From Megaustenia siamemsis (taxonomy: Eukaryota > Mollusca > Gastropoda > Stylommatophora > Ariophantidae): DNA of 64,000 nt. Made by a program: the position numbers and the translations under genes. Under the pieces are notes generated by a model. It was not told where the DNA came from. It ran no database searches and saw only the letters and a list, made by a program, of their open reading frames with translations. Of this stretch, positions 1,042-60,319 are shown in pieces. Position 1 is the first letter of the stretch. Every line of letters begins with the position of its first letter. Where the stretch lies: the NCBI GenBank assembly GCA_032433765.1, contig JAVIAB010000101.1, positions 62,646,092 to 62,710,091 of the forward strand, written 5' to 3'.

Positions 1042-1077
1042 GCAGGAAACAACTTGTATTTAAAAAAAATGGCAGTG
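1042..1077 (+). CDS. Micro-exon 1, 36 bp (AGNNLYLKKMAV)
   Basis: The acceptor is ...gtattcacAG and the donor GTAAGT at 1078. It reads AGNNLYLKKMAV in phase 0. It is the most upstream micro-exon I can see; no initiator or signal-peptide exon is visible before it. A second AG six bases in would give 32 bp and break the phase. Exon 2 follows after a 175-bp intron. Confidence 0.6.
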
Positions 1078-1252
1078 GTAAGTTATGCGAACCATCGAAT
1101 AAGTGTAGTCTATTTAAATAAGTGTATATATGTTTCTTACAATTATCGTATAATAACATTTAGTTATATGTTCACGTTACCCATAAAACCGTAACAAAGT
1201 GTTACAACACTTGTTAAAAGCTACAATAAGGATTATAACCAATCCATACAAG

Positions 1253-1285
1253 CTCTTAAGTGAACATGATAAACGTTACGTTGCG
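1253..1285 (+). CDS. Micro-exon 2, 33 bp (LLSEHDKRYVA)
   Basis: It ends at GTAAGT (1286). The acceptor AG at 1251-1252 follows a mixed CA-rich tract (ataaccaatccatacaAG) and is weaker than the others. It reads LLSEHDKRYVA. A second AG at 1259-1260 would leave 25 bp, out of phase. It is called mainly for its strong donor, its phase and its position between exons 1 and 3. Confidence 0.5.
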
Positions 1286-1399
1286 GTAAGTAATTATTCT
1301 AAAAAAATATAAACAAATATCACATAGATAATTCAGATAGTTTAAATAATGATAGATGTGATATAGTTGTTGGCATTGAAATATAATGTTACACTTCAG

Positions 1400-1420
1400 A
1401 TATCGGCATATGCCAAGAAG
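1400..1420 (+). CDS. Micro-exon 3, 21 bp (ISAYAKK)
   Basis: The acceptor is ttacacttcAG and the donor GTAAGT at 1421. It reads ISAYAKK. It closely resembles exon 5 (ISNFVLK): both start Ile-Ser, have an aromatic at residue 4 and end in Lys. It pairs with the 30-bp exon 4 to form the first 17-residue module. Confidence 0.7.
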
Positions 1421-1685
1421 GTAAGTATTGCGATTTAAGAGTGACACAATGCGTTGTCATAGAAACAATTACGTTTTTATTATAATTAGATTTATTAAGA
1501 CACATCATATTTTACTATACTTTACTGAGATTAGGAAAGTGAATACAAAAGAAGGTGACATTTAGTTGATATGGCCACAAATGGCATTCATGAGAAGATA
1601 CAACTTTCTATTGTTGATTAAAGAGGTCGATGGCTTTTAGTTGAGTGACTGCCGACCTGATGGTTCTGCATTTAAATATCAGCTG

Positions 1686-2140
1686 ATCATCATCATCAAG
1701 TACCGGGTCTGCTGGCGTAGGTGATCATGTCTCTCCACAACTTTCGGCCACGACAGTTATTGATCATTTCTGTTGTTAACCTTCTGTCAAGCCATTCTCA
1801 TAAGCTGTCTGGTATCTTTTCTTTTTGCTTCCCTCTATCTCTTCTTCCCTCAAGTTTCCCAGTTGTTACAATATATTCTAGCTGTTTTCTTCGCATTACA
1901 TGGCCAAATAATGATAATTGTTTCTTCATAATATCGGAAATTAGCTCTCTTTTTGCGTTGGCCTCTTTCAGAACGTTTTCATAACTCTTTTTAGCTTTCC
2001 ATGGTATTCTCAAAATTCTTCTGTAAAATCACATTTCGACAGACTCCAGTGATTTTCTTATCTGTTGTCATATTGTCCAGGATTCACAACCATATGTTAA
2101 AACTGGTTCTACATAAAATGTAAGAACTCTTTTTTTCAAT
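1686..2140 (-). mobile_element. RTE-1 LINE, 5'-truncated 3' copy
   Basis: On the minus strand this encodes MRIPWKAKKSYENVLKEANAK, GHVMRRKQLEYIVTTGKLEG, GRRDRGKQKEKIPDSL and a C-terminus ending at the (TGA)n tail near 1690. It matches the plus-strand RTE-1 copy at 353-963 and is broken by stops and frameshifts. The inner (5') end is near the run of T at 2133. Confidence 0.88.
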
Positions 2141-2540
2141 TGATACCCTCAGCTAAATATATATCGCCTTGCAAAACACCGCTTGACATTAGTCCAATAG
2201 CTATGTGTATGGTCTTTGCCGTCTTGACGGGCTGTTGACTTCAAACAATCATGATAAGTAAGAAGTTAGGTAAAAATGTTAGTGCCTATGTGGGATGCTA
2301 TTTATGTTGAACGTAACTGAATCTGCCAATAACTGGATAAACAATTCCCTCTGCTGAATGAACAAGATGTATCTGTGGTACCTGGCCTCGTTTCCTATCG
2401 CGTTCGCCATTAGTCTTTTGAATTTGATACCAACGCTGCCTTAATTGTGCCTTATTTTTAAAAGTTATGATTGCCATGTGCCACCATCTGTAGCCAGATT
2501 TTGCTAATATCTTTCAGTGAAATAGAATTCACTCATGTAT

Positions 2541-2562
2541 ATATATATATATATACATATAT
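2541..2562. repeat. (TA)n microsatellite
   Basis: A TA dinucleotide run lies directly 5' of the repeat F copy that begins at 2563. Confidence 0.85.
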
Positions 2563-2820
2563 TTCCCGTGTGTTAACGGGGACCTCGTTATGAGGGAAGT
2601 AAAGAATAGTGACACTGTGACCTTCCATGCATGTCGCAAGAGGCGACTAAGGAGATTGATCGATGGCTTGACAAGCTGTCATTGTAAAAGGTATTGTTAT
2701 GGAAACAGACCATAGATTTTAGAGCAGTGATCTCTGCAATATATGTCATTTTGGCACGCAAGGTTTCTGTTTTAGAGATTGTGGTTCTGCCCTATGTGCC
2801 GTCTTTGGCTCGAAATGACA
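2563..2820 (+). mobile_element. Repeat F, SINE-like element with conserved central module
   Basis: It begins TTCCCGTGTGTTA and contains a block around 2625-2665 with CATGTCGCAAGAGGCGACTA. It ends with CTCGAAATGACAATATA and a TA tail. A second, about 90 percent similar copy is at 63,481-63,750 with its own target-site duplication, so this is a discrete mobile unit of roughly 260-270 bp. The GTCGYAAGAGGCGACTAA core resembles central domains of mollusc SINEs as I remember them. No tRNA-like A and B boxes are clear. Confidence 0.75.
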
Positions 2821-2823
2821 ATA

Positions 2824-2891
<68 letters not shown>
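2821..2891. repeat. (TA)n(GA)n(G)n microsatellite
   Basis: A compound simple repeat: TA units, then about ten GA units, then a run of nine to ten G. It is the tail of the repeat F copy, extended by slippage. Confidence 0.9.
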
Positions 2892-2893
<2 letters not shown>

Positions 2894-2904
2894 CAACACA
2901 GAAA

Positions 2905-3163
2905 TGGAGCACCTAAACAAAAACATCAGGAAGAATAAAAAGGCATTTTTTTCGGGCACACCATGAGAAGAGGAAAGTTTGGTTACAACTGGCTAAATGC
3001 AGATAAAGAGAAATGGCGTACGAAAACAAGAGAAGATACTAGATAGCTTGGTGACATGGCAAGGACAACAGTAAACTATATAATTGATCTGATGCAATTT
3101 TCATAAAATTGTGGAAGGACATGATCATCTACGCCAACTTGTATGGCACATGATGATGATAGT
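2905..3163 (+). mobile_element. RTE-2 LINE 3' fragment
   Basis: It aligns with the RTE-2 C-terminal coding stretch (LKNIRKNKKAFFSGT, a MRRGKFGYNWLN-like block, IVEGHDHLRQLVWHMM in a shifted frame) and ends at a (GATGAT)n tail near 3157. Several single-base indels break the frame. Confidence 0.8.
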
Positions 3164-3229
3164 GATATATATATATGGATACGATTGAGGGTAAAGAGAC
3201 GTCATTTGTCTAGCTTCTATAGTTATAAT

Positions 3230-3447
3230 ACAGCCAACTAAAGATTTACTAAGGCACGCTGGCAGAAAAGAAAACCGTAAAACCCGACCAACTAGAATGA
3301 CTTAATCAACTATAGGAGCTATAGGCGGGTGAATTTCATGTTACTCACAATTTCCCTGCTCGCAAAGCTGAAAACGTCACGATAGTTACAGATTTTCCGG
3401 ACATTTCTTCTCAGCATGCAGGCCTAATATCATCTATAGTTGGCTGT
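3230..3447. mobile_element. MITE-like element copy 1, 218 bp
   Basis: The left end ACAGCCAACTAAAGAT is inverted at the right end as ATCTATAGTTGGCTGT, giving a terminal inverted repeat of at least 16 bp with one mismatch; similarity continues inward (TTACTAAGGC versus GCAGGCCTAATATC). It is about 75 percent similar along its length to the 217-bp copy at 52,999-53,215. There is no coding capacity, which suits a non-autonomous DNA transposon. No clear target-site duplication flanks this copy. Confidence 0.8.
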
Positions 3448-3619
3448 GGCCATAAAGCCGCGCCAGTTGGAGAGTTTTCGGGTTTCATTGTCTGCCACCG
3501 AGCCTTTGTAAATCTATAAGTGGCTATGGCGAGTTTATCTAAAGTAGGTCATGAGTGGAAACATATTTGTGTGACCTATTTTTCTGTTTGTGTTCGATTT
3601 TCTAATAACCATTTTCATC

Positions 3620-4260
3620 GTTCATCATTGAGTGCTGTCTCCGCATCGAAGGTTGGCTAACATGGACCGCTGTTCCGGTCTTAATTCTATAGTGCAGGTT
3701 TGTCATAGGGTGACATCCATCTTTTGATGTTACTCGACCATGGTAGTTTTGGTCTGCCTCTGCCTCTTTTACGTTGTATTTTCCCTTCCAATATTACTTT
3801 TAGTAGGCTGCTGTGTCTTTTAACATGTCCCGAAAATATCATTTGTCTTGTTTGAATTGTGTTTAGTAGTTCTCTTATCATTGTTAGTTGCTTTAAGACG
3901 AGTCTGAGGTTATAATTTCTCTCCATGGCTTTCTGTGGAACAGTAAAGGGTGAGGCTCTCTATCACGGCGGTCAGCCATATTCATCTTTCGTGTCCTGAA
4001 TATGCCTCTTACGTACCCCACACTTTGTTGTTTTCGCTTTCTGCGCAGTTGACCATTTCTGATTCTTCCGTCCCATCTTCTGTCACAGATTCAATTTCGG
4101 ATGTCGTTAAATGCGTTACATAAAAGTCAGAGACATTTTGTCTTTGTTTTCTCTTAATATCAACGGAAAAGACGGTTTGTGTAGAATCATATAGATCAAA
4201 GCGAAATGTATAACTCAAATGACGACGGAACCGGAAATACGTATGTGGAAAACCACCCGG
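3620..4260 (-). mobile_element. RTE-3 deletion derivative joining 5' and 3' ends
   Basis: On the minus strand, 4,218 to about 3,930 matches the RTE-3 N-terminal ORF (EDGTEESEMVNCAESENNKV here; DGADESAIINGPESKNSKV in the copy at 36.4 kb). It then runs straight into the C-terminal region (LKQLTMIRELLNTIQTRQM, GHVKRHSSLLKVILEGKIQ), ending at a short CATCATT tail. The endonuclease and reverse transcriptase in between, about 2.5 kb in the long copy, are missing. This is either a one-off internal deletion or a short non-autonomous form. Confidence 0.8.
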
Positions 4261-4443
4261 TCAATATTACTGATAAATAAATGATCGAATAAAGCAACTC
4301 AAGAGGTCAGAAGACATAACTTTTGAAATGTGGTTTTCAAATAACTAAACTCACATACACACATCCGTGAACTAAATAGAATGATTTTATAAATCACAAG
4401 ATAATTATGGCATATCAAGTGTATAAATGTAGAATGATGTAGT

Positions 4444-4698
4444 TCGTTCGTTCGCTTTCGTCAGCTTTGACCTCTGACGAAGTCCCACCCACTCAATTTT
4501 GTGGGACTGAATTTTTGCGTGTCAAGTCTGTTTTATCCCATTACAGGATGCCCCTCGCCATTTAGGCAGATTTACTCCGACTTCAGAGGTACTAATTTTT
4601 AGGGAATTAGTAAAACCCAGGTGTCCTCGCCAGGGTACGAACCCCGGCTGTTGCCGTGGTAAGCCAACCGCCTATCGATTGCGCTAACCGGACACCCC
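4444..4698 (-). mobile_element. SINE-B, tRNA-derived, with perfect target-site duplication
   Basis: Read on the minus strand, the head (GGGGTGTCCGGTTAGCGCAA...) has a Pol III A-box-like TTAGCGCAATCGATAGG and a B-box GGGTTCGTACCC about 45 bases later, as in a tRNA. The body carries GGCGAGGGGCATCCTGTAATG and the 3' end is a (CGAA)n tail. The 13-bp duplication AGAATGATGTAGT at 4431-4443 and 4699-4711 fixes both ends. The head differs from SINE-A. Confidence 0.9.
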
Positions 4699-4919
4699 AG
4701 AATGATGTAGTGATGAAAGTAGTACCAGATTATGGTGACGTGACAAAGAAAAAAAAATGGTACAGAAACTTATCTTATCATGGCACACGTTGAATCAGCA
4801 AAATCGACGATAACCAGATTTATGTAATTGTTTCAACATCAGAAAATGTCCAGTTAAATGTAGCTGTTTCAACATAAAATAAAAATCTCCAATTAAATTA
4901 AATTAACAATATCTCTCTC

Positions 4920-5140
4920 TGTAATCAAGACTCAATCAGAGTAGGATTTCAGACTCTCTCATGAAGTCTGCTGTCTGTTTAAGTGATTCGTTTGCCCCAC
5001 ATAGTTTCTCTTCCAGGGAGGTGGCTGTGGACCACCTTGCTCTTCTCAAGTCTGTGTAACTTGGGGTGGGCCCCTTCTTGGCACGTGGCCCAGCATTTCA
5101 CCAGCCTGGGGAGACTCCACAGACAGAGCATCATAATTAG
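4920..5140 (-). pseudogene. GC-rich coding-like segment, possible LINE C-terminus
   Basis: This stretch is clearly richer in G+C than its surroundings. On the minus strand it reads GPTPSYTDLRRARWSTATS, then LEEKLCGANESLKQTADFM and RESEILL before a stop. That looks like the C-terminus of a LINE polyprotein, but I cannot match it to another copy in the window. A host exon is less likely, since no splice sites fit. Confidence 0.35.
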
Positions 5141-5320
5141 AGTCAATTAGATCCTTTCCGATCGAATACATGTTAAAACGTTACACTATGTTCTGTGCCA
5201 GTGGCCCAGTGCATTCGATTTCAGCCAGCATTTTCAAATATTATTTAAAGCAGAAAAAATGTACATGCAATTCTAATATATTAATTTTTTTTTCAAATAA
5301 ATTGCAATATACCTTTACAG

Positions 5321-5350
5321 ATCGACAACGTGTTACGTGGACAAGCAGGT
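5321..5350 (+). CDS. Micro-exon 4, 30 bp (IDNVLRGQAG)
   Basis: A strong acceptor (tatacctttacAG) and donor GTAAGT at 5351. It reads IDNVLRGQAG, with Gly at residue 7 like most of the 30-bp exons. With exon 3 it gives ISAYAKK-IDNVLRGQAG, which aligns with exons 5 plus 6. Confidence 0.75.
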
Positions 5351-5839
5351 GTAAGTAAAGCAATGTAGAACTCGATGGGATGTAATTCAAGAATCAAACC
5401 ATTTACTTTAGACACAACGTCTGATGGTAGCTCGAATTAATAAATTAACCGTTACCATTTTGTATCTGGTTATGATATGAGCTAACATCAGTCTTCAGAA
5501 AGTGCCGTTAATGGGGAAACATTATAATATTGTTACATCTGTAGGGAAATTAAAAAGACTTTAACGAGAGTCACACAAATTAGGTTAATGAACTAAAGTG
5601 GCTACAGATCTGCATGGTGGGACACACTTAAGGCAAACGAAGCTAATAATTTGTCACATTGTATAGTTTTTTCCGAAAAAAGAATATACCTTTTTGTAAT
5701 TAATTATTACCGGTCAATCTGATGTTATATGAAAATCTTTTTTTATACCAAAGATGATTTAGTATCTCCACATTTTTCTGGTATCTTACTTTACAATGAT
5801 TCAATATAGTTGCCCTTCCTGACAAGAATGATATCTAGT

Positions 5840-6935
5840 CGATAGTCCATTGTGTTAATGAGTTATTGAGTTATGTGCGGGTCATCATCATTGCACTCCG
5901 AACATGTCCATAGGTGCTCAGATCCCCTCCTCAGCAATTCCCTCAGTGCCCAGCGACTGACGACTCCAGTTCTATGTTGGTTGATAAGTCTTCTTACACG
6001 GCCACTAAGTGTCTCATTTCTGGCTGTGCCCAACTTAACTCCCATTTCCATCATCCGAAGAAGTGACGTGGATCTGTGTTTGCCGAAGTCCTGTGCTCTT
6101 CCCACATCTCGGAGGGCATTGATGATATCCGCCCGATCCATTGGTTGCCCGTCCTCAACAACAGCGCAGCTAGCCTACCTGTCCGCCCTTTCATTTCCCC
6201 GTACTCCCGCTTGTCCAGGGACATAGACAAAAGTGACCTTACGTATTTTGGATTTCTGTAACGACTCTACCCATTGTATGCGTACATAGCCCGCCTCCAC
6301 TTTTTTTTTATCATGCTCATCGAATCACTCAGTATACATGCGTGGGTGTAGTCTTGTGACTCTAACCATATGAATGCCTTGGTCACTGCCATCGCCTCCA
6401 TTGTCATGCTACTTGTGGTCATGACGTATGCAGCACTGTCTTCTTTGACTATTCTGCCAGTCGAGCGTGCTGTAAAAGCCCATGCACTTCTTTGGTGTCG
6501 CCTTACAGATTCGTCTGTATAGATGACTGCATCTTTCTCATCGGTGTTATCGCAGATAAGACCGTTAACCTCAGCATTAACCACGACCGGGTTCTGTTCC
6601 CTACTTTTCCTGTCAAGTGTGAAAATACACGAGAGAGTCCCCTTGAATGACGTAGGCACCGGTATCCACTCCTCACCAACGCTGATATTGGTAGCTGAAC
6701 GTTGATGCTTTGGATGGTCCAGACTCATGTGCACTTACTCAGTAGCACGGTCCAGAACCCTTTTCCACGTTATAAACTGGCCAACTCCAGTAACTACCTC
6801 TACAGCACGCGGATACACTGTGAGCCTTCGACAAATTAAATGAATTACACGTCCTTGACGACAGACCGACGATAGTCCATTTCCTTCCATAATCAACTCA
6901 ACATGTTTCTTGTAACGGGGCAACAAGGGCTTCAT
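5840..6935 (-). pseudogene. LINE-N C-terminal region with RNase H domain, degraded
   Basis: On the minus strand this codes, with an in-frame stop near 6735 and a frameshift near 6300 at a run of A, for the end of a LINE polyprotein. It contains the RNase H start AVIYTDESVRRHQRSAWAF (the Asp of YTD is the first catalytic residue), SSMTMEAMAVTKAF (Glu of MEAMA), ILSDSMSMI (Asp of SDS) and, past the frameshift, GNERADR (final Asp). A C-terminal domain follows (RRLINQHRTGV, SEHLWTCSECNDDDPHITQ). The domain order fits I/Nimb-type LINEs; the subclade is inferred from memory of mollusc genomes. It is non-functional and 5'-truncated. Confidence 0.85.
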
Positions 6936-7430: not shown

Positions 7431-7439
7431 TATTTATAC

Positions 7440-8058: not shown

Positions 8059-8162
8059 CTCACAGTTAGTGAAGAGTTTGGAGACTAATGAATATTGAAT
8101 ATAGATGACCGACATCGATATATAAGCAGGCATGTTAGTAATTCTCTTAGTGAATATGACTG

Positions 8163-9380: not shown

Positions 9381-9401
9381 ATCAGCAATTTTGTACTTAA
9401 G
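9381..9401 (+). CDS. Micro-exon 5, 21 bp (ISNFVLK)
   Basis: A strong acceptor (atcttctattccAG) and donor GTAAGT at 9402. It reads ISNFVLK, the closest relative of exon 3 (ISAYAKK). It pairs with exon 6. Confidence 0.75.
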
Positions 9402-13681: not shown

Positions 13682-13711
13682 GTTAACAAAATGATTGCAG
13701 GATTGCGTGCA
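13682..13711 (+). CDS. Micro-exon 6, 30 bp (VNKMIAGLRA)
   Basis: A strong acceptor (cttccctttaccttccaAG) and donor GTAAGT at 13712. It reads VNKMIAGLRA, with Gly at residue 7. An internal AG at 13699-13700 would leave 11 bp, out of phase. With exon 5 it forms ISNFVLK-VNKMIAGLRA. Confidence 0.75.
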
Positions 13712-15902: not shown

Positions 15903-15923
15903 CTGGGACAATTTGCAATCAAT
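15903..15923 (+). CDS. Micro-exon 7, 21 bp (LGQFAIN)
   Basis: One of the strongest acceptors in the window (ctaacctttcttcttttttAG) and donor GTAAGT at 15,924. It reads LGQFAIN; the aromatic at residue 4 and Ala at 5 match exons 3 and 5. The possible terminal exon at 60.06 kb also starts LGQ. Confidence 0.78.
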
Positions 15924-20315: not shown

Positions 20316-20345
20316 GCTCTTCCTTTGACGAATATAAAAGTGACG
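20316..20345 (+). CDS. Micro-exon 8, 30 bp (ALPLTNIKVT)
   Basis: The acceptor is tatatgtctccgtAG and the donor GTGAGT at 20,346. It reads ALPLTNIKVT. It follows exon 7 in the 21-plus-30 order but lacks the Gly at residue 7. Closely spaced repeats of AATAAACGTGTTGACATGTTC lie just upstream. Confidence 0.65.
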
Positions 20346-22437: not shown

Positions 22438-22479
22438 ATAAAAGACTCAGTTCATGGAGTGGTGGGAAACACAACAAAT
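22438..22479 (+). CDS. Micro-exon 9, 42 bp (IKDSVHGVVGNTTN)
   Basis: The acceptor is caccattctgtatttattAG and the donor GTAAGT at 22,480. It reads IKDSVHGVVGNTTN and is the longest micro-exon. Two internal AGs would give 35 or 29 bp, both out of phase, supporting the 42-bp form. Confidence 0.65.
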
Positions 22480-27668: not shown

Positions 27669-27698
27669 ATAAATGCTTTTCTGAAAGGAACATTGCAA
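27669..27698 (+). CDS. Micro-exon 11, 30 bp (INAFLKGTLQ)
   Basis: A strong acceptor (tttttattctattttAG) and donor GTAAGT at 27,699. It reads INAFLKGTLQ, with Gly at residue 7 and the same [IV]-[DN] start as exons 4 and 6. Confidence 0.75.
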
Positions 27699-31091: not shown

Positions 31092-31124
31092 GCTGCAATA
31101 GAGGCCCCTGTCTTGGTAACAAAT
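31092..31124 (+). CDS. Micro-exon 12, 33 bp (AAIEAPVLVTN)
   Basis: The acceptor is tctgtataattctAG and the donor GTAAGT at 31,125. It reads AAIEAPVLVTN. The 8.8-kb intron after it is the longest in the model and holds the full-length RTE-3. Confidence 0.68.
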
Positions 31125-32301: not shown

Positions 32302-33008
32302 TCATATTCTTTTGTTTATTTCAGTTGTACATTTTCCATCACTGGTTATAGTATGCCCAAGGTAGTTGTAGTTTTGAACTGTCTCCAGGTCCTTCAATTT
32401 TGATAATCCACTTGTGGGTTTTGAGTATTTCCTTTGTTTATGATCATAGTTTGTCTTTTTGATATTCATATCTAGTCCATATTTTTTGCTTTTGTTTATT
32501 TCATTTAGTAATTGTAGATCTTTATGATTTTCTGCTAGAAGTACAGTATCATCAGCATAGCTTAGGTTATTGATTATCTTTCTATTAATGTTTTGGCCTG
32601 GCATCTCTATGATGTTTTTAAAGATTTTCTCAGTGTATAGATTGAACAAGGTTGGTGATAAGATGCATCCCTGTCTTACTCCTCTTTTTATTTCAATGGG
32701 TGTAGATTTCTCCCAGTTTGCTCCCAGTATAGATTGCATATTAGTCGTATGTCCATGTCATCTAGATGTATCTCTATTAGGCATTGTATAAGTTGTTTGT
32801 GGTGTACCCTTTCAAATGTTTTGGTGTAGTCTATGAAGCAGGCATATATTGGTTTGTTTACTTGTGTGTACTTGTTGATTAATGTTCTCATACAGAATAT
32901 TATTTCTTTTGTCCCGCTATTTTTCCTAAAACCAAATTGCTGCTCATCTAATTCAGTATTGATTTTATTCTGAATCCTTCCTTGTATAACTTGTATAGCT
33001 CGTTTCAA
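32302..33008 (-). pseudogene. RTE-3 reverse transcriptase palm and thumb
   Basis: The frame reads IQNKINTELDEQQFGFRKNS, YACFIDYTKTFERVHHKQLI (first catalytic Asp in FIDYTK), RGVRQGCILSPTLFNLYTEK, NNLSYADDTVLLAENHKDL (the YADD catalytic pair is intact) and VQNYNYLGHTITSDGKCTTE. A frameshift near 32,690 splits it into two overlapping frames (ending and starting at KRGVRQ). The RT is cut 5' by the Tc1/mariner insertion at about 33,013. It is a typical RTE-clade RT, not functional. Confidence 0.88.
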
Positions 33009-33013
33009 ATCAC

Positions 33014-34900
33014 GTGCCCAACTTCAAAACGCTATTACTCAGTAACCGTTTGTTAAAAACTGTTGAAATTTTCCAAATGTTATTAGAATGCAAAAGACCC
33101 TTTAAATGTATATTTAACAAATATCTTGCCGCTTCAGTTTTCTTAACGCGGCGAATTTCTTTGATGTTTGTCAAAATTGTAAATTGTGAACCCCTAAAGA
33201 ATAGAAATTACCATAGTTGCTGGTCTATGATTAATTTTCACTAGGTAAAGGCGTGGCCGTAATGGGGAAATAACTGAATAAGACAAAACACCAGGAGAAT
33301 TATTGTCTTCTCTGTTCGAGGACGGACGATAATATCAAGGTATACCTGTATGTCCAATTTTCATATTTGTGTGGTCCTGATAAGGACCGTTTGTTGCACT
33401 AATTTAAGGTAATATAGGGGCCAACATTGTGGGTGCTATATACTTTCATTCTGAATTAGACGAGTCTAAAAGATTAATAACTGTTTGGGGTTGAACATTC
33501 CACAAACCATCATTTTTTCAATATTTCCCTCCCTGTTTTAAGACGTGGTCTTCACATTTAGCCCAATAATCTTTGTCTATATTTAATAAAGCGAGATTAG
33601 CAAGAGTCTTTACAACGCATATTTTGAATGTTGTATTTTCATCTGCCACTTGTCCTTTTAATTTTGCCCAGATTAGTTCTATTGGATTTAAATGAGCATG
33701 GTAAGGTGGCAGCCTCAAACTTATATGACCGTGCTCTTGAATAATCTTATCTATTTTAAAAATCGTTGTCCTTTGTTTTTGCTTTACTAGAGATAGTAAT
33801 TCAGGTTTTTAAAGTACATGTTATTAAATTGTATGTGCTCCTTTGTAAGTCATATCTTAATAGCATCTTTTGTACTGGATGACGTCGGGATGTTGCCGAC
33901 TACCTGCATGAGCAATTATCAAGCGCTGTCCTTTGCTGCTAGGTATTAATCTCTTAATCTTTCCATCTGATGACTGCCATTCCCTTTGGTTAGTGTGGTG
34001 AGCATTGATCCATGTTTCATCCATGTACACAATATCATAACCTTGCTTGCGCACCTCTTTTACTTCACGTAAGTACTTGCTTCTCATGACTACTATATGT
34101 GGCTTCTCACAGATGATGTTTCGTCCATTGGAATACTTTCTGAATGTAAAGCCTTCAGCTCTCACATTCCTCCATAATGTAGACTTTATTATTTCAATAC
34201 TGTTGTTCTTTTTCATCGATACTTTTAATTTTCTTATTGTAACAGTTTCATTCATACCCAACATTTTGCGAATTTCACTTCTAATAAGTTCACTGTCGAA
34301 ATTATCCAACATTTTTGCTCTTCCTTGTGATTTTGTATATTTTGAACATTGACGGTCACGTGCTTGAATCCAGCGATTAAATGACCGTTTAGATAAATCC
34401 AAAATGTGTCTTGTCCTATTCTCAGGGTTTTCTAAAGAATGAAATAATCTTCCTCGTTTAGCCTCTTTGCAAAAATAGTCATACATTTTTATTGCGATGT
34501 TTTGTAAACTGCAGAATTTCATTTTAAGACTCATGATAAATGTTATCGTTCCACGGCTCCACCTATGAATGAACGGAAATGGAACACACCATTTTTAGTG
34601 CTTTTTACAAGTGTCTAATTGTGTCAAAAAACCACGGTAAAAGCGTGCAAACACGTCAGTTTGACCGTGTATGGATTTTTACTCGCTATTTTTAACTTAA
34701 AATACTGTAAACATTAAGTTTTTACTACATCAATGGGTCGTTATAAATTTATATAAATCAAATCAGCAACAATAATAACCAAATGTTTTTTTAATGAAAT
34801 TAATTCCATGTTGGGTTTTAATCATTATAACTTTACATGCAAATTTTGAACAACTTACAACAAGCGGTTAAAAAGCTATCGATTTTAAAAGTTGGGCACG
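33014..34900. mobile_element. Tc1/mariner/IS630-type DNA transposon nested in RTE-3
   Basis: The left end GTGCCCAACTTCAAAACG and the inverted right end GTGCCCAACTTTTAAAATCG share 11 perfect bases and looser similarity for about 40 more (AACCGTTTGTT versus AACCGCTTGTT). It encodes a DDE_3-type transposase on the minus strand. The RTE-3 RT reading frame resumes on both sides, showing insertion into an existing RTE-3. A TA duplication, normal for this superfamily, is not obvious, so the exact ends may be off by a few bases. Confidence 0.85.
33518..34534 (-). pseudogene. Tc1/mariner-like DDE_3 transposase, internally deleted
   Basis: The first frame (34,534-33,857) has an N-terminal DNA-binding part (LDLSKRSFNRWIQARDRQ) and the catalytic start DIVYMDETWINAHHTN, with the first Asp, then KRLIIAHAGSRQHPD. 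The second frame (33,718-33,518) has LRLPPYHAHLNPIELIWAKLK, with the final Glu. Between them only about 140 bp remain with fragments like TKEHIQFNNMYF and KPELLSLVKQKQ. The block that normally carries the second catalytic Asp (V-x-D-N-A-x-Y-H in this family) is missing, so the enzyme cannot be active. The family is widespread in invertebrates. Confidence 0.88.
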
Positions 34901-35631: not shown

Positions 35632-36425
35632 TCATTTGGTTGTTACTTTTTCATCATGATTTTCTCTTCTGTATTGCTCAATTCCCTCTTCTAGTAGCTT
35701 CTGGTATGTGTTCTTTACTTGTATTGTATAGGTATATTTAATATCTTTTCGATTTAAAGCTGTTATATCTAGTGGATTTGTTGATGAATTACACTTTTGC
35801 TTGTTTTTCTTTAGTTTGATTTTTATTTTATTCATTACAGGATTGTGATCTGAATTAATATCTGATCCTGTGTATGTTTTGGTTTTCTCTACGCTGTTAC
35901 GTAACCTTTCTTTTATCATTATGTAATCTATTTTATTCCTCTTCTTATCTCCAGGTCTTTTCCATGCGTATAGTTTCCTTTTCTCTTGCTCAAAGTAGAT
36001 GTTACATATTATCAGCCTGTTTTCTTCACATAATTGTATTAATATTTCTCCTCTGTCATTTCTTTTTCCTAAACCATGATTTCCTATGATGGTTTATATC
36101 TACATTTTCCTACTTTAATTCTTTCTGCTTCTTGAATCAGATTTTCCAATTTCCCTTCTTGACATAGTACCCTAACATTCCAAGTACTTATTTTAAGATC
36201 TTTCCTCCGACATAAGTTCGAATTCCGCTCCATTGCTTCCTCTGGACTAGCACGTGATAAGGCTCCAATCTCTTTCACTTTGGTCAGCCACATTCGTCTT
36301 TTGTGTTCTGCATATGTCTCTTGTGTACCACACACTTTGCTGTTTTTGCTTTCTGGGCCGTTGATAATTGCTGACTCGTCCGCCCCATCCACCGTTGCAG
36401 TCTTTGTACAATTCGGAATGGACAT
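35632..36425 (-). pseudogene. RTE-3 N-terminus and APE endonuclease, internally deleted
   Basis: The frame from 36,425 reads DGADESAIINGPESKNSKV and AEHKRRMWLTKVKEIGALSR, then the endonuclease start LKISTWNVRVLCQEGKLENL. After ERIKV it jumps to the endonuclease end: GNHGLGKRNDRGEILIQL, RNKIDYIMIKERLR and SDINSDHNPVMNKIKIKL, which includes the Asp-His pair of SDH. The central endonuclease (metal-binding Glu and catalytic Tyr-His regions, roughly 100 residues) is deleted. The linker QVKNTYQKLLEEGIEQYRRE follows. Inactive. Confidence 0.87.
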
Positions 36426-39902: not shown

Positions 39903-39935
39903 CTACACCCAGTGGATACTACAACTCCACAGCAC
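39903..39935 (+). CDS. Micro-exon 13, 33 bp (LHPVDTTTPQH)
   Basis: A strong acceptor (tttcttttgcctgatAG) and donor GTAAGT at 39,936. It reads LHPVDTTTPQH. The LHP start recurs in exon 18 (VLHPRLG). Confidence 0.72.
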
Positions 39936-43250: not shown

Positions 43251-43645
43251 AAACCCATATTTGTTCATGCCATGTTTATTTCAAGTAATTCTTGTAGATA
43301 TTTAGTATTTTCTGCTAGTAAAACAGTATCATCAGCATATCTTAGGTTATTGATTATCTTTCCAATAATGTTTAGGCCTAGCATCTCTGTGATGTTTTTA
43401 AGGATTTGCTCAGTTTTGATTACGATTGGTAATTGGAAGAATCCCTGTCTAACTCCTTTCATATAAATAGGTCTAGAGGTCTCTTTGTTATATTGTGTTA
43501 TTGCTGTTTGCTCCCAATATAAATTACATATTAGTCGTATGTCTGTGTCATTTAGATGTATATTTTTTAGGCAGACTATAAGTTGCAAATGGTGTCTATA
43601 AAGCAGGCATATATTGGTTTGTTTCAGTGTACTAGATATGATACA
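42627..43645 (-). mobile_element. RTE-3 LINE, 5'-truncated copy
   Basis: Minus strand: a decayed tail near 42,630, GHVKRHSSIPKEILEGKMQ, and at 43.3-43.6 kb CLKNIHLNDTDIRLICNLYW, then MLGLNIIGKIINNLRYADDT, where the YADD catalytic motif is intact. A (TA)n run at 43,222-43,250 interrupts it. Confidence 0.9.
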
Positions 43646-43788
43646 AATAAACTTTATGAAAATGTGAACAAACTATAAGTTGTCTGATACACTACGGTTA
43701 TCGCTTGATACTATGACCAGGTTGAAACATCTTCCACATTTCAGATCGTATGAGATAAACTTACTTAGAAGAGCTATTTTATATTGAT

Positions 43789-44381: not shown

Positions 44382-44402
44382 ATTGATAGGAAAGCACAAG
44401 AA
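44382..44402 (+). CDS. Micro-exon 14, 21 bp (IDRKAQE)
   Basis: A strong acceptor (cacaaactttcttttAG) and donor GTGAGT at 44,403. It reads IDRKAQE. Joined with exon 16 it gives IDRKAQE-IVGVMNGRPL, which fits the 17-residue module of exons 3-4 and 5-6. Confidence 0.75.
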
Positions 44403-47166: not shown

Positions 47167-47196
47167 ATTGTTGGTGTGATGAACGGCCGACCGCTA
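47167..47196 (+). CDS. Micro-exon 16, 30 bp (IVGVMNGRPL)
   Basis: The acceptor is ctgtcgatgtcttctaAG and the donor GTAAGT at 47,197. It reads IVGVMNGRPL: Gly at residue 7, Pro at 9 and a large aliphatic at 10, as in exons 17 and 19. (Number 15 is reserved for the weak candidate at 46,218.). Confidence 0.75.
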
Positions 47197-50336: not shown

Positions 50337-50366
50337 GGCAAATATACGTCCGATGGATTGCCAGTG
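50337..50366 (+). CDS. Micro-exon 17, 30 bp (GKYTSDGLPV)
   Basis: A strong acceptor (tttctttattttttgtAG) and donor GTAGGT at 50,367. It reads GKYTSDGLPV, related to exon 19 (GRDPTTGEPL): Gly 1, basic 2, Gly 7, Pro 9, aliphatic 10. Confidence 0.78.
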
Positions 50367-52672: not shown

Positions 52673-52693
52673 GTATTACATCCCAGATTAGGG
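52673..52693 (+). CDS. Micro-exon 18, 21 bp (VLHPRLG)
   Basis: The acceptor is ggggcttacattttAG and the donor GTAAGT at 52,694. It reads VLHPRLG. It precedes the 30-bp exon 19, repeating the 21-plus-30 order. Confidence 0.7.
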
Positions 52694-54330: not shown

Positions 54331-54334
54331 CACT

Positions 54335-54770: not shown

Positions 54771-54864
54771 ACAGGCAATGCAATCATTTACGCCATCTTC
54801 CCAGACGTTACAATATCTGTCAGGAAATCGGAAAATATATTCAAAGTAGTGTATTGTTGTGTCA

Positions 54865-55140: not shown

Positions 55141-55615
55141 ATGTTATATAATGATACACATGTACGGTGTTGTCAGAATCTATCACGTAAGAAAGAGTAT
55201 GCCAATGTTATATAATGATACACATATACGGTGTTGTCAGAATCTATCACGTAAGAAAGAGTATGCCAATGTTATATAATGATACACATGTACGGTGTTG
55301 TCAGAATCTATCACGTAAGAAAGAGTATACCAATGTTATATAATGATACACATGCACGGTGTTGTCAGAATCTATCACCTGAGAAAGAGTATACCAATGG
55401 TATGTAATGATACACATGTACGGTGTTGTCAGAATCTATCACCTGAGAAAGAGTATACCAATGTTATATAATGATACACATGTACGGTGTTGTCAGAATC
55501 TATCACCTGAGAAAGAGTATACCAATGGTATGTAATGATACACATGTACGGTGTTGTCAGAATCTATCATCTGAGAAAGAGTATGCCTATTGTATATAAC
55601 ATACACATTTGTCAG
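55125..55615 (+). repeat. 64-bp minisatellite derived from the 35-bp unit
   Basis: Each unit keeps the parts of the 35-bp unit (CCAATG..., TCAGAATCTATCAC, GAGAAAGAGTA) but has about 29 extra bases (TTATATAATGATACACATGT and ACGGTGTTG) between them. Seven to eight units; CGTAAG and CCTGAG subtypes occupy the left and right halves. Confidence 0.93.
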
Positions 55616-55797
55616 AGAGGCAAATTGGTCAGCAGGAATCAGCTCCCTCAATGAGATCGAGTTGCTTGCACTGAACAGAGACAAATGGCGATATTTGATA
55701 AACACATCTTTGCAAGGATTGAGACTAGAAAGAACATAAAAAAGAGAACGATTATCCGGGTCTGTATCTTATGGCTCGGATGGTCAATCGATAGATA
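55612..55797 (+). mobile_element. LINE-V short 3' end with (GATA)n tail
   Basis: It reads SLNEIELLALNRDKWRYLIN, a common LINE C-terminal pattern (EIExLAxDRxxWRxLI), then untranslated sequence and GATAGATAGATATG. It interrupts the end of the 64-bp array, which reappears at 55,798. Confidence 0.6.
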
Positions 55798-55885
55798 GAT
55801 ATGATATACATGTACGGTGTTGTCAGTATCTATCAACAGAGATGTAGTATTCCAACATTATATAATGATACACATACGGCTTTTT
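55798..55885 (+). repeat. Displaced unit of the 64-bp array
   Basis: ATACATGTACGGTGTTGTCAG, TATCTATCAACAGAGATGTAG and ATTCCAACATTATATAATG: one and a half units beyond the LINE-V insertion. Confidence 0.8.
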
Positions 55886-56550
55886 ATTTCGAGAATTAAA
55901 TCGACGTGTCATAATGGGTCTCTCAAACATAATTTGTTATAACTGGGTACTACAGATTAACTAAAGTTTGTATGTACATAGCAAATGTATTTTGACGATG
56001 ACACTGACTTTGGTGTTTTTTGTTTTGTGGTTTATCTAAATTCCTTAAATGCAAGCATACCAGTGGGTGCATGCACGTATCTTCACAGCAAACTACTATC
56101 CCAGCATCATCAGTGACGTCTTTGTTATAATGCGAATCAGATTGATTAATCGTATATCTCATCTTCTTTAAGAAAAGAAAATGACTCATTAAGGAAATTC
56201 ATAGATAGCATAATTGAAGTTTGCAAGAAATGTATTGTAACAAACAATCAAATAATGAATGCAGAGCATGCATGACATGAGATGCGCACAGATAATATAT
56301 TTCAAAAGTATTGGATATGTTTTTCACTAGACACAGATTTAGGTAGACACCGGACCTGGACATATTAGATCATTTGCTCAGATGATCTAGAATCAACGAC
56401 AGACACGTATTGTCATTAAAATGAAAGACTGGCGACGGCTAGGGCGATGTAGAACGAGAGACAAGGCAGAGAACAGTGGAGACAGAGATGAAGAGTGTGA
56501 GTCAGATGTGAGGTAGACTGTGATTGATGAGCAAGGGAAGCACGAGGTGG
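55886..56550. other. No recognisable feature
   Basis: AT-rich sequence between arrays; no motif, splice-flanked frame or repeat match. Confidence 0.4.
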
Positions 56551-56554
56551 CGGT

Positions 56555-56895
56555 ACTTTGATGTTGGTCTACAGAACTTGAATGATCACAGTGAAGTGAA
56601 GGCAATATATATGATACGCTACACGACATGAATGGCTTCGGCCCGCGCGAAATGAAGGCACTAAAGCGAGGCGCGACATAACGTGAAAGGCTTCGGCCCG
56701 CGCGAAGTGAAGGCACCAAAGCAAGGCGCGACATAACGTGAAACGTGAAAGGCTTCGGGCCGCGCCAAGTGAAGGCACTGTAGTGAGGCGCAAAATAACG
56801 TGAAAGGTTTCGGGCCGCGCGAAGTGAAGGCACTATAGTGAAGCGCGATATAACTTGAAAGGATTCGGGCCGCGAGAAGTGGAGATGCTTTGATG
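56555..56895 (+). repeat. 55-bp GC-rich minisatellite
   Basis: The unit contains CGCGCGAAGTGAAGGCACTA, AAGCGAGGCGCGACATAACG and TGAAAGGCTTCGGGC. About five units, much richer in G+C and CpG than the surroundings. Flanks carry CTTTGATGTTGGTCTACAG, the same words that head the 33-bp array. Confidence 0.9.
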
Positions 56896-57972
56896 TTGCT
56901 CTACATAAGATGAAAGCGCACGAGCCACCCCAAGTTGAGACACGTTGATGTTGCCTTAAGGACGTGAATGACCAATGTCATAACAAAGTAGAGGCAGGTT
57001 AATGTTGCTGGCAGAACAAAGTAGAGGCAGGTTAATGTTGCTGGCAGAACAAAGTAGAGGCAGGTTAATGTTGCTGGCAGAACAAAGTAGAGGCAGGTTA
57101 ATGTTGATGGCAGAACAAAGTAGAGGCAGGTTGGTGTTGCTGGCAGAACAAAGTAGAGGCTGGTTGATGTTGCTGGTAGCACAAAGTAGAGACAGGTTGA
57201 TGTTGCTGGTAGCACAAAGTAGAGACATGTTAATGTTGCTGGCAGCACAAAGTAGAGACATGTTAATGTTGCTGGTAGCACAAAGTAGAGACATGTTAAT
57301 GTTGCTGGCAGCACAAAGTAGAGACATGTTAATGTTGCTGGCAACACTAAGTAGAGACATGTTAATGTTGCTGGCAGCACAAAGTAGAGACAGGTTAATG
57401 TTGCTGGCAGCACAAAGTAGAGACAGGTTAATGTTGCTGGCAGCACAAAGTAGAGACAGGTTAATGTTGCTGGTAGCACAAAGTAGAGACATGTTAATGT
57501 TGCTGGTAGCACAAAGTAGAGACATGTTAATGTTGCTGGCAGCACAAAGTAGAGACATGTTAATGTTGCTGGCAACACTAAGTAGAGACATGTTAATGTT
57601 TCTGGCAGAACAAAGTAGAGACATGTTAATGTTGCTGGCAGCACAAAGTAGAGACATGTTAATGTTGCTGGCAGCACAAAGTAGAGACAGGTTAATGTTG
57701 CTGGCAGAACAAAGTAGAGACATGTTAATGTTGCTGGCAGCACAAAGTAGATACATGTTAATGTTGCTGGCAGCACAAAGTAGAGACATGTTAATGTTGC
57801 TGGCAGCACAAAGTAGAGACATGTTAATGTTGCTGGCAGCACAAAGTAGAGACATGTTAATGTTGCTGGCAGCACAAAGTAGAGACATGTTAATGTTGCT
57901 GGCAGCACAAAGTAGAGACATGTTAATGTTGCTGGCAGCACAAAGTAGAGACATGTTAATGTTTCTCTACAC
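56896..57972 (+). repeat. 33-bp minisatellite, about 30 units
   Basis: The unit is AAAGTAGAGACATGTTAATG plus TTGCTGGCAGCAC. With a period of 11 codons and no stops, three frames stay open for over 330 codons (plus: LMLLAAQSRDM; minus: LPATLTCLYFV and NINMSLLCAAS), all confined to the array. I take them as artefacts. Variants AACACTA/GCACAAA and ACAGGT/ACATGT mark duplicated blocks of several units. Confidence 0.97.
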
Positions 57973-58034
57973 GACGGCACTAGGCGAACAAACTATTATC
58001 TGATTTATTGATCTGTGGAAAAAGAAAAGCGTAA

Positions 58035-58110
58035 AGTAAAGCATTCATTCAATTCATTCGTTCATTCATTTTTTTTCATTCATTGTTTTTTATTCATTCA
58101 TTTTCTTCTC
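58035..58110 (+). repeat. (ATTC)n microsatellite
   Basis: Imperfect ATTC units with T-runs, at the 3' end of the minus-strand LINE-S copy; it may be that element's tail (GAAT)n. Confidence 0.85.
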
Positions 58111-58735
58111 GTGCCGAATACAGCACATAGGGCGAAGGTTACAGTTCTCCACGATTGACAACTTGTTGCTTGACATTGTAGTTCTTATTGTTCTCTTAGT
58201 CCTACGGCTGAGCCTTCCCTAATAATTGTTCTGCTTAGCGATTCTTCTGGTATTTCTTGTTTTCTTTTACCAGATCGTTTCCACATGAATGCCTGATGGG
58301 GAAGTCTTTCGTCATTCATTCTCAACACGTGATCGATGTATCTCCAACGACTTCTTCTTATAAAGCTCGAATATGAGGGTTGTCATATTCGACATGTCGA
58401 CACGTATTATTGTTTTCATTCGTCTCTTATATGCTCGATTGAATTGAATTCTTTCCAACTTATGCTGGAGATCCAGAGAAGATTTTTGTTTCCAATGCCA
58501 TTTAATGTCCCTATCTAAAGTCTTGGTGAAATTCCAATTTTCACATCCGTTTATAAGCATTGGTATCACATATGAGTTGAACAATCTAAGTTGTATACCG
58601 TTACTGATATTGTTGAACCTTCAGTTGATCATCAGTTTGTTGAAACCATCTGCTGTTAGTGTGATGCATGTCATTATTTCTGATGCCATTTCTCCAACTT
58701 TGCACACTTTTCTGCCCTAGTAGATAACATTTGTC
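58080..58735 (-). mobile_element. LINE-S 3' copy with (GAAT)n tail
   Basis: MFNSYVIPMLINGCENWNFT (the VIPxLxYGCExW block after RT), KTLDRDIKWHWKQKSSLDLQ, HKLERIQFNRAYKRRMKTI and KSLEIHRSRVENE-stop, then broken MNDERLPHQAFMWK-like coding to 58,110. It belongs to none of the other groups here. Confidence 0.75.
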
Positions 58736-58973
58736 ACTTGTTTATACAATTTCATTGTTAATTGTTATATAGCATCCTTTGTTGGCGATATCCAGGACAT
58801 TCAAAATAAAGCATAGTCAAGGAAAGAAATACAAAGTGAGGTTGAAGATCCTTATGTAATTTATATAACTGCGATATATGAAAAGTAAAATTAGTTATAA
58901 CAAATATAAATATACCTTATACGAATGTTTTACTAAATGTAAATTAATAAAACTAGTCCCTTATAACTTCCAG

Positions 58974-59003
58974 GGAAGAGATCCGACCACTGGAGAGCCA
59001 TTG
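58974..59003 (+). CDS. Micro-exon 19, 30 bp (GRDPTTGEPL)
   Basis: The acceptor is agtcccttataacttccAG and the donor GTAAGT at 59,004. It reads GRDPTTGEPL, related to exons 16 and 17. Confidence 0.78.
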
Positions 59004-59009
59004 GTAAGT

Positions 59010-59900
59010 ATGTTCATGTAGGATTGACGCATATCTAAATGGATTTTTTAAACACGCATTTAAACACATTCATATATACACAGACACATAATTAATATAA
59101 CATCAGCTAATGACAAATTCCCTAGATGCATACGATCAAGTCATTTAGTGTGTATTTGGTAACATAAATGTGTGAACCTTGTGTCTCGAAGCAAATCCGT
59201 TAATGCACGCGTTGTCATATGAATGCGTCACATCATCAAAGTAATACGTTTTCTATTTCATGCGAGATAAATTGCTGTATTGTAATAAAACAATTGAGAG
59301 CGAAAGGAGCATTTGATCTGGCTAAATATGTATATTCTCGAATGTATGCTAAGCCCACACACAGTACATATATACTTGGATTTTGAGTCTGACTTTGCCA
59401 CTTCTTCACTCCTGTGTCTTTTTGTCTTGTCACATGTCTAACTTCTTTTATATCGAATCTCAATATCATTCTTTTAGCAACGTGGTAAAAACGACAACTC
59501 TTATATTCTCATTACGTGGATAAAAAGTTACGATTATCTTCAAAAGAAATGTTAGTTTTGTTTCCTTTTTAGTGTAAGTGTTAGGCCTTTAACATTCATG
59601 TTTTCTGAAATTTTGGAAGTATCTTTTTTTAACATTTCTACTCGAAGTTCGTTGTCCTTTTTCCATGGTATGCCTTTCGAACGATTTGGTTTAACGTTTT
59701 TGGTTCAACATTGGCCATTGGAGAATATTTGATCTTTATTTGATAAAGGTGAAGGCTAAATGAAACAGCTTACGATAAAAATCCTGGTGAAAATGGGATA
59801 ACGTGCGCAATGTTTTTAGTGTGAGTATCATATTGTGCGATAATAATAATATATACAAATAACACAAGTAACATGTTTCTCTTCTATAAACAAAATCGAT
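59010..59900. other. Intron, no feature recognised
   Basis: AT-rich. A weak minus-strand coding-like stretch (KTLNQIVRKAYHGKRTTNFE near 59.65 kb) may be LINE residue; not called. Confidence 0.35.
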
Positions 59901-59912
59901 ACCTCATCTTAG

Positions 59913-59942
59913 TTTTACAGTGTGATGGATTGTGCAAGCCAT
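59913..59942 (+). CDS. Micro-exon 20, 30 bp (FYSVMDCASH)
   Basis: Donor GTAAGT at 59,943. Two acceptors are possible: cctcatcttAG at 59,911-59,912 gives 30 bp in phase (FYSVMDCASH), while tttacAG at 59,919-59,920 gives 22 bp and breaks phase. The 30-bp form fits the gene. It has Cys at residue 7 instead of Gly. Confidence 0.55.
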
Positions 59943-60058
59943 GTAAGTAAGATAATAGACAAAGCATGTAAATAGTAGATTTCCTATTAAAATATGAGAA
60001 AACTTGCGAGGATGTTTAATTCAGAGAGATGATTGTCATTTGTGTTTCGTGTCTACAG

Positions 60059-60070
60059 TTGGGCCAGTGA
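60059..60070 (+). CDS. Possible terminal exon (LGQ-stop)
   Basis: A strong acceptor (tttgtgtttcgtgtctacAG, 60,057-60,058) is followed in phase 0 by Leu-Gly-Gln and TGA. LGQ also opens exon 7. AATAAA sites lie 10-14 bases further on, and no micro-exons are seen after this point. If right, the coding region ends here with a very short 3' UTR. Confidence 0.4.
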   Translation: MGQ

Positions 60071-60079
60071 ATACTTGTA

Positions 60080-60089
60080 AATAAATAAA
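60080..60089 (+). promoter_or_regulatory. Polyadenylation signal candidate
   Basis: Two overlapping AATAAA hexamers (60,080-60,085 and 60,084-60,089) just after the possible terminal exon. In AT-rich DNA such hexamers also occur by chance. Confidence 0.35.
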
Positions 60090-60319
60090 ATAGTTTCCGA
60101 TCTACCAGTTGTAAAACGTGCTTGAACACAAGTTATTAGTGGGTCGACCCATCGAATGTTTAAAGCATTGGCGTCGCAGACAAGTAAAATATGCATCCAA
60201 TATTGCATCACATCATTATATAAGAATGTTCTTTAAAGAACGATGATGGTAGATTTATGTTCGAACGGTCAAATAATAACACTTTCTTTTCTTTTACTCA
60301 TTTGGAAATCACTGTACAG

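What the first reader, a model, noticed from the sequence alone, without database searches (positions are those of the whole stretch)
1042..60110. A gene built almost wholly from phase-0 micro-exons of 21-42 bp, hidden among transposons
Seen: 19 plus-strand segments between a splice acceptor and a GTAAGT/GTGAGT/GTAGGT donor, all with lengths divisible by three and open in phase 0, giving about 186 codons without a stop over 59 kb. Taking the few acceptor choices into account, this regularity is hard to get by chance. None lies inside a recognised repeat. Known: schistosomes and other flatworms have micro-exon genes with symmetrical exons that allow exon skipping to make variant secreted proteins. 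Inferred: this may be an analogous gene in a mollusc-like animal. Standard ORF callers miss it because no exon exceeds 14 codons.
Basis: partly seen in the sequence, partly recalled or inferred. Interest (0 to 1): 0.93.

Follow-up and report, generated by a model that had tools for sequence, protein, structure and literature searches.

The report
Chromosome-scale family of micro-exon genes
A stretch of mollusc DNA carries dozens of tiny open reading-frame pieces, most of them exactly 21 or 30 letters long and flanked by splice-like signals that resemble each other, which would be spliced into long and probably helical proteins; the same signature recurs across about 34 million letters of this one chromosome-sized contig, so it is likely a large family of giant micro-exon genes.

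Summary
A fixed rule gives 19 in-frame, open, plus-strand segments in the window; 300 local shuffles average 1.7 (maximum 8) and the minus strand gives 6. An intron-only splice model trained on 16 window exons finds more in unseen flanks: at score 20 or above, 14 of 14 flank and 14 of 14 window segments are multiples of three and open; the minus strand has 3, none a multiple of three. Lengths are mostly 21 and 30 bp (31 of 37). The 21-bp exons encode related heptapeptides and the 30-bp exons related decapeptides, with hydrophobic residues at helix-like spacing. Intron ends share a motif beyond the splice consensus. Predicted exons span 276 kb on one strand. Genome-wide, 10 of 10 exact matches to the extended donor motif, and 31 of 39 matches to a 21-bp-exon pattern, lie on this 71-Mb contig of a 2.59-Gb molluscan genome; a 20-bp control pattern has 0 of 4 there. 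Three protein searches found no homologue. It works like schistosome MEGs and aphid megacycle genes but is not shown to belong to either. Transcription and alternative splicing are untested.

The parts
1042..1077 (+). predicted micro-exon, 36 bp, AGNNLYLKKMAV
   Evidence: score 23.4
1253..1285 (+). possible micro-exon, 33 bp, LLSEHDKRYVA
   Evidence: donor score 14.7, acceptor poor
1400..1420 (+). predicted micro-exon, 21 bp, ISAYAKK
   Evidence: score 19.8
5321..5350 (+). predicted micro-exon, 30 bp, IDNVLRGQAG
   Evidence: score 21.7
9381..9401 (+). predicted micro-exon, 21 bp, ISNFVLK
   Evidence: score 23.4
13682..13711 (+). predicted micro-exon, 30 bp, VNKMIAGLRA
   Evidence: score 26.2
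15903..15923 (+). predicted micro-exon, 21 bp, LGQFAIN
   Evidence: score 26.5
   Evidence: leave-one-out acceptor -4.5
20316..20345 (+). predicted micro-exon, 30 bp, ALPLTNIKVT
   Evidence: score 25.2
22438..22479 (+). possible micro-exon, 42 bp, IKDSVHGVVGNTTN
   Evidence: extended donor 14.2, acceptor weak
   Evidence: leave-one-out acceptor 0.4
27669..27698 (+). predicted micro-exon, 30 bp, INAFLKGTLQ
   Evidence: score 26.6
31092..31124 (+). predicted micro-exon, 33 bp, AAIEAPVLVTN
   Evidence: score 20.5
39903..39935 (+). predicted micro-exon, 33 bp, LHPVDTTTPQH
   Evidence: score 20.2
44382..44402 (+). predicted micro-exon, 21 bp, IDRKAQE
   Evidence: score 19.9
47167..47196 (+). predicted micro-exon, 30 bp, IVGVMNGRPL
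   Evidence: score 22.0
50337..50366 (+). predicted micro-exon, 30 bp, GKYTSDGLPV
   Evidence: score 21.6
52673..52693 (+). predicted micro-exon, 21 bp, VLHPRLG
   Evidence: score 20.9
58974..59003 (+). predicted micro-exon, 30 bp, GRDPTTGEPL
   Evidence: score 22.7
59913..59942 (+). predicted micro-exon, 30 bp, FYSVMDCASH (an alternative acceptor at 59921 would give 22 bp)
   Evidence: score 25.0; alternative seen
   Evidence: acceptor score only 2.7; sequence

Best explanation
This is likely part of a giant mollusc gene, or of a tandem run of such genes, predicted to be spliced from dozens of mostly 21-bp and 30-bp phase-0 micro-exons, probably built by repeated exon duplication, and likely one of a large family on the same chromosome-sized contig. 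Shown: the segments, their lengths and open frames, the likeness of the encoded peptides, the shared intron-end motif, and the concentration of the signature on one contig. Inferred: each 21-bp exon encodes about two turns and each 30-bp exon about three turns of an amphipathic helix, so an exon can be gained, lost or skipped without breaking either the reading frame or the helical register. Inferred: the long donor motif (GTAAGTAATATgATcTAGAA) helps the splicing machinery define exons that are too small for ordinary exon definition. Inferred and untested: the product is a fast-evolving, possibly secreted, helical protein that varies by exon choice.
For: Window rule: 19 observed against 1.7 in shuffles. 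Unseen flanks: at score >=20, 14 of 14 segments multiples of three and open; minus strand 0 of 3 multiples of three. No exon bases were used in that model, yet hydrophobic residues pile up at position 1 of 12 of 12 21-bp exons, and at positions 1, 4, 5 and 9 of the 19 30-bp exons (12, 12, 15 and 11); 0 of 20,000 within-exon shuffles were as uneven. Pairwise BLOSUM62: 21-bp exons -0.06 against -6.3 (sd 0.67); 30-bp exons -3.3 against -8.6 (sd 0.49) in shuffles. Within-exon hydrophobic moment at 90 and 100 degrees above all 2,000 shuffles. No two 21-bp exons adjacent among the 37 (12 of them 21 bp; p 0.005). Shared motif to about +20, not seen in the consensus of 42 other plus-strand donors; at <=3 mismatches 19 plus, 0 minus in 354 kb. 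Genome: 10 of 10 exact donor-motif matches and 31 of 39 21-bp-exon-pattern matches on this contig, which is 2.7% of the genome; 20-bp control 0 of 4, 18-bp pattern 5 of 5.
Against: No transcript was available, so splicing is untested. No homologue in three protein searches, Pfam or PDB. The eight exons between 31 and 60 kb show no helical signal (p 0.31), and the concatenated chain has no clear peak at 100 degrees (1.1, against 3.1 at 105 and 2.5 at 160), so one continuous helix is not supported. With the seven rescued exons added, two pairs of 21-bp exons do become neighbours (-69964/-64399 and 92894/96810). The purine excess of codon position 1 over position 3 is not significant (p 0.41). 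None of the 31 C100 matches lies in the fetched 354 kb, so that pattern finds relatives, not these exons, and some matches are probably copies of each other. Exons elsewhere on the contig were located by pattern only; their sequences could not be read. The 19-bp control did not complete. No signal peptide or first exon was found; the 3' end is only a candidate at 104,318.
Confidence: 0.72

Rival explanations
1. The segments are chance AG...GT intervals picked by a permissive eye.
For: AG, GT and GTAAGT are common; with no pyrimidine demand the two strands are close (28 plus, 24 minus), and three of the 19 segments probably are chance.
Against: Shuffles, minus strand, wrong lengths, unseen flanks and the genome-wide length control disagree.
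Confidence: 0.02
2. The array is a decayed or non-coding repeat family (for example a dispersed element) whose copies carry splice-like ends.
For: Intron ends share sequence, exon neighbourhoods align better than random pairs (median 26 against 19), and the signature is concentrated on one contig, as a satellite or element can be.
Against: Frames stay open at 28 of 28 top segments, the peptides are alike at residue level, the 37 exon neighbourhoods do not align to other places of the 354 kb by blastn except for 1 hit reaching the exon zone, which is a tandem copy beside the exon, and flank likeness fades within about 40-70 bases.
Confidence: 0.08
3. It is a cluster of several separate micro-exon genes rather than one 280-kb gene.
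For: Two runs of exons look like copies: the top 6-exon diagonal of 630 pairs -7452 onward with 71074 onward (72.2; next best 70.3), with introns 322/341 and 3900/3840 bp, though the other introns differ; the first exon pairs align at z 4.8; a weak terminal exon lies at 60059.
Against: The diagonal is only 3.4 sd above the mean, and internal duplication inside one gene would look the same, as in aphid megacycle genes (PMC9168663).
Confidence: 0.4
4. It is a known coiled-coil or repeat gene whose exons happen to be short, simply diverged past recognition.
For: Helix-like pattern; the only Pfam match at E<=10 is a weak Syntaxin_2 (E 0.54).
Against: No family above its cut-off, no PDB match, and known coiled-coil genes do not have runs of 7- and 10-residue exons (recalled).
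Confidence: 0.1

Closest known systems
Aphid bicycle and megacycle genes (PMC9168663; found passages and section 12 read)
   Same: Very many micro-exons of like size, internal tandem duplication with shared intron positions; the Melanaphis sacchari megacycle gene has 118 exons in about 100 kb. Bicycle internal exons are almost all of one phase.
   Different: Bicycle internal exons are phase 2, and the genes are reported from aphids and several outgroup taxa; here exons are phase 0 in a mollusc, lengths cluster at 21 and 30 bp, and there is a long shared donor motif. Salivary-gland over-expression and a secretion signal are reported there; nothing of the kind is known here.
Schistosome micro-exon genes, MEG (PMC10526429; abstract and found passages read)
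   Same: Short exons, mostly multiples of three, with long introns; hard to annotate.
   Different: MEGs have 10-20 exons of 6-81 bp, most often 15 bp, introns up to about 5 kb, an N-terminal signal peptide and proteins up to 189 residues; here 44 predicted exons, mostly 21 and 30 bp, apparent introns up to 39 kb (missed exons possible), no signal peptide found, not a flatworm.
Neuronal microexons of animals (PMC8797185; search listing and start of abstract only)
   Same: Exons of similar size (recalled).
   Different: Those are single cassette exons inside ordinary genes (recalled); here the exons found are all micro-exons.

Membership tests
Schistosome MEG | Most exons short and multiples of three | tested here: met
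   28 of 28 top plus-strand segments, as predicted exons
Schistosome MEG | N-terminal signal peptide exon | tested here: inconclusive
   5' end not reached; predicted exons continue to -179.7 kb, near the end of the fetched DNA at -190 kb
Schistosome MEG | Sequence relation to known MEGs | tested here: inconclusive
   No protein match at E<=10; whether that database holds MEGs was not checked
Schistosome MEG | Flatworm genome | tested here: not met
   Molluscan haemocyanin, 71 matches
Schistosome MEG | Exon skipping gives variant proteins | not testable with these tools
   No RNA data
Aphid bicycle/megacycle | Internal exons nearly all in phase 2 (stated for bicycle genes) | tested here: not met
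   Segments open and peptide-conserved in phase 0
Aphid bicycle/megacycle | Many micro-exons with internal tandem duplication | tested here: met
   Exon peptide families; duplicated run only suggestive
Aphid bicycle/megacycle | Salivary-gland expression and secretion | not testable with these tools
   No RNA or proteome

The most novel reading that the evidence does not exclude
About 34 Mb of one mollusc chromosome is a dedicated array of giant genes made almost only of helix-step micro-exons, each read through a private long donor motif; exon duplication and skipping in whole helical turns make it a combinatorial protein generator that standard annotation does not see.
Probability: 0.42. Interest if true: 0.96.

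Novelty: new variant of a known kind. Interest (0 to 1): 0.88.

Why it matters
If transcribed, this would be a separately evolved kind of micro-exon gene in a mollusc, spread over more DNA than the aphid megacycle gene of about 100 kb (PMC9168663), though with fewer exons found so far. It would show that annotation built on long reading frames can miss a gene family spread over much of a chromosome. It makes two questions testable: how exons of 21-30 bp are recognised (here perhaps by a motif that reaches about +20), and whether exon length can be set by protein helix geometry as well as by reading frame.

Tried and rejected
Chance was tested first and rejected. My earlier PWMs included exon bases and could have biased the first codon, so I repeated the scan with intron-only models. 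Direct homology gave nothing: three protein-database searches with concatenated peptides of 160, 337 and 442 residues (the last padded with X to change the length range), none with a hit at E<=10, plus Pfam and PDB (19, 20, 63, 64). No RNA family at the gathering score and no tRNA in the window. The extended-motif scan is not clean: of 31 new plus-strand segments at score >=20, 10 are multiples of three and 14 and 7 are not, most of them sharing one splice site with a known exon, and a tandem repeat near -164 kb adds low-scoring ones. From that list I chose seven exons by eye (open, 21, 30 or 36 bp; scores 16.4 to 26.3); the clean statistics are those of the 37. Likewise the six and three extra peptides in the 'extended' rows were picked by eye; the core rows are the test. 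The comparison of the run at 1042 with one near -10.5 kb was not significant (z 1.4), and ungapped matches of the six colinear exon pairs were unremarkable (ranks 283 to 801 of 946). At score >=17, 11 plus-strand segments did not fit the rule (6 in the window, 5 in the flanks); I left them out of the 37. Class within Mollusca was not settled; haemocyanin exons matched several solved haemocyanins. Literature: ten searches; none of the papers listed was about a molluscan micro-exon gene of this kind, but searches listed only 30 of 117 and 20 of 7,050 papers, and the library lacks most subscription journals and preprints.
Full report
OBSERVATION. On the plus strand this gives 20 segments of length 0 mod 3 (19 open), 4 of 1 mod 3 and 7 of 2 mod 3; on the minus strand 8, 6 and 3 (6 of the 8 open). 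In 300 local order-3 Markov shuffles the mean of open segments was 1.7, the maximum 8, and none reached 19. The 19 segments total 187 codons. Without the pyrimidine demand the two strands are close (28 of 53 and 24 of 56 donors), so the acceptor quality carries much of the signal.

INDEPENDENT TEST. The window is part of contig C100 (71.0 Mb) of a 2.59-Gb genome in 155 contigs. I fetched 190 kb upstream and 100 kb downstream. A splice model trained only on intron bases of 16 window exons was run over the 354 kb. At score 20 or more: window 14 of 14 and flanks 14 of 14 are multiples of three and open in phase 0; the minus strand has 3, all 1 mod 3. At 17 or more: window 16 of 22, flanks 21 of 26, minus 2 of 12 are multiples of three (1 of these 2 open). 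The 37 fitting segments have lengths 21 (12), 30 (19), 33 (2), 36 (2), 39 (1) and 42 (1). They lie on one strand from -179,693 to +92,914 in window coordinates; seven more were added with the extended motif by eye, to +96,830. An earlier model that included exon bases gave 31 of 31 at score 20 on the plus strand and none on the minus.

CODING EVIDENCE. The model used no exon base, so the peptides are a free test. All 12 heptapeptides of the 21-bp exons start with a hydrophobic residue; position 4 is hydrophobic in 9 of 12 and position 7 in 0 of 12. The 19 decapeptides have hydrophobic counts 12, 7, 2, 12, 15, 2, 1, 8, 11, 4. None of 20,000 within-exon shuffles was as uneven. Pairwise BLOSUM62 means of the core sets are far above shuffles and above random AG...GT segments (0 of 2,000 each). 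With six more exons chosen by eye the heptapeptides tend to I-[S/T]-x-[F/I/Y]-[A/V]-[Q/K]-x. Amino-acid composition of the 16 window exons is protein-like (+18.5 bits; null mean -17.6, sd 8.2) and position-1 purines are raised (67%, p 0.003); the excess of position 1 over position 3 is not significant (p 0.41).

HELIX AND EXON LENGTH. The within-exon hydrophobic moment is above all 2,000 shuffles at 90 and 100 degrees, as for an alpha helix. The signal is in exons upstream of 28 kb (24 exons, p 0.002) and downstream of 60 kb (5 exons, p 0.001), not in the eight exons at 31-60 kb (p 0.31), several of which are rich in Gly and Pro. The joined chain shows no clear peak at 100 degrees. My inference is that 7 and 10 residues are close to two and three helical turns, which would explain why no 24- or 27-bp exon is among the 37. 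That step is untested.

DUPLICATION AND MOTIF. No two 21-bp exons are neighbours among the 37 (12 of 21 bp; p 0.005); with the seven added exons two such pairs appear, perhaps from missed exons between them. Bases beyond the splice consensus are shared: downstream GTAAGTAATATgATcTAGAA to about +20, upstream to about -40, fading towards background by 70 bases. Bases +10 to +20 were not in the model. The 42 other GTAAGT[A/T] sites on the plus strand show no such consensus; the 51 on the minus strand show a different, weaker one. Scored with the extended donor model, fitted on the same exons, 27 plus-strand sites reach 15, 25 of them at predicted exons, and 0 on the minus strand. At up to 3 mismatches the motif occurs 19 times on the plus strand (16 at donors of predicted exons, counting the orphan donor at 102,338; 3 are tandem copies beside one of them) and 0 times on the minus strand of 354 kb. 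A run of exons from -7452 pairs best with the run from 71,074 (72.2, top of 630 six-exon diagonals, 3.4 sd, next 70.3; introns 322/341 and 3900/3840 bp, others unlike), which suggests an older block duplication. This is suggestive only. A donor at 102,338 that matches the motif closely (19.0) and an acceptor at 104,318 followed by 16 codons, a stop and a poly-A signal 214 bases from the acceptor mark a possible 3' end. The 5' end was not reached.

GENOME. The motif GTAAGTAATATNATNTAGAA has 10 exact matches in the genome, all on C100 (33.6-66.7 Mb, both strands; one is an exon donor of this array); C100 is 2.7% of the genome. With up to 2 mismatches there are 1,150 matches against 699 for the reversed control; the list is cut off, and part of the one-mismatch matches are a tandem repeat at 3.24 Mb and groups on C24. 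The pattern CAGAT-N19-GTAAGTAATAT, a 21-bp exon starting AT, has 39 matches (control 4), 31 of them on C100 at 33.6-67.5 Mb, 4 on C24, 3 on C116 and 1 on C1. None of the 31 lies in the 354 kb read here, and some are probably copies of one another. The same with 20 bp has 4 (control 4), 0 on C100; with 18 bp 5 (control 1), 5 on C100. The 19-bp control did not complete.

ORGANISM. The genome has 71 matches to the molluscan haemocyanin family PF14830; 0 of 14 control genomes have any. Two haemocyanin exons match solved haemocyanins, among them keyhole-limpet KLH1. The class is open.

COMPARISON. The closest likeness is the aphid megacycle gene, with more than 100 micro-exons, about 2000 residues and internal duplications (PMC9168663, section 12), whose bicycle relatives have phase-2 exons. 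Schistosome MEGs have 10-20 exons, most often 15 bp (PMC10526429, passages). Lineage, and for bicycle genes phase, speak against membership. The working likeness stands.

VERDICT. The micro-exons are in all likelihood real coding features; that they belong to giant genes of a chromosome-scale family is supported by pattern counts but not yet read; how the protein works is inference.

Noticed in passing
C100:45.81-45.93 Mb and 47.10-47.23 Mb (genome coordinates): Three donor-motif variants recur in the same order with identical letters 1.29-1.30 Mb apart on the minus strand, which suggests a recent block duplication (two of the three also).
   Followed up: no
C24:8.8-13.3 Mb and C116:45.7-45.8 Mb: Small numbers of motif or pattern matches off C100, partly in tandem; possible second clusters or unrelated repeats.
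   Followed up: no
C100:3239546-3241346: A tandem array, mostly 33-bp spaced, of a near-match to the donor motif.
   Followed up: no
window coordinates -179,622 to -179,538 (L029): Three tandem near-copies, 42 bp apart, of the donor motif just after the 30-bp exon at -179,693.
   Followed up: no
window coordinates -189,419 to -181,972 (L030): A regular tandem array with a period of about 438 bp, seen as 18 repeated identical minus-strand hits.
   Followed up: no
window 32302-32757, 35632-36093, 43265-43672 (minus): Reverse-transcriptase and endonuclease-like fragments of LINE-like elements between predicted exons; the first is above the Pfam cut-off, the other two below it.
   Followed up: partly
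window 33857-34594 (minus): A 245-codon frame with a weak, below-cut-off DDE_3 transposase match (E 0.082).
   Followed up: no
window 56983-57963: A 33-bp tandem array of about 30 copies, open in three frames; not part of the finding.
   Followed up: no
C1:79.29-81.13 Mb and C101:39.08-39.24 Mb: Dense clusters of molluscan haemocyanin domain matches, some with stops, with several look-alike copies.
   Followed up: no
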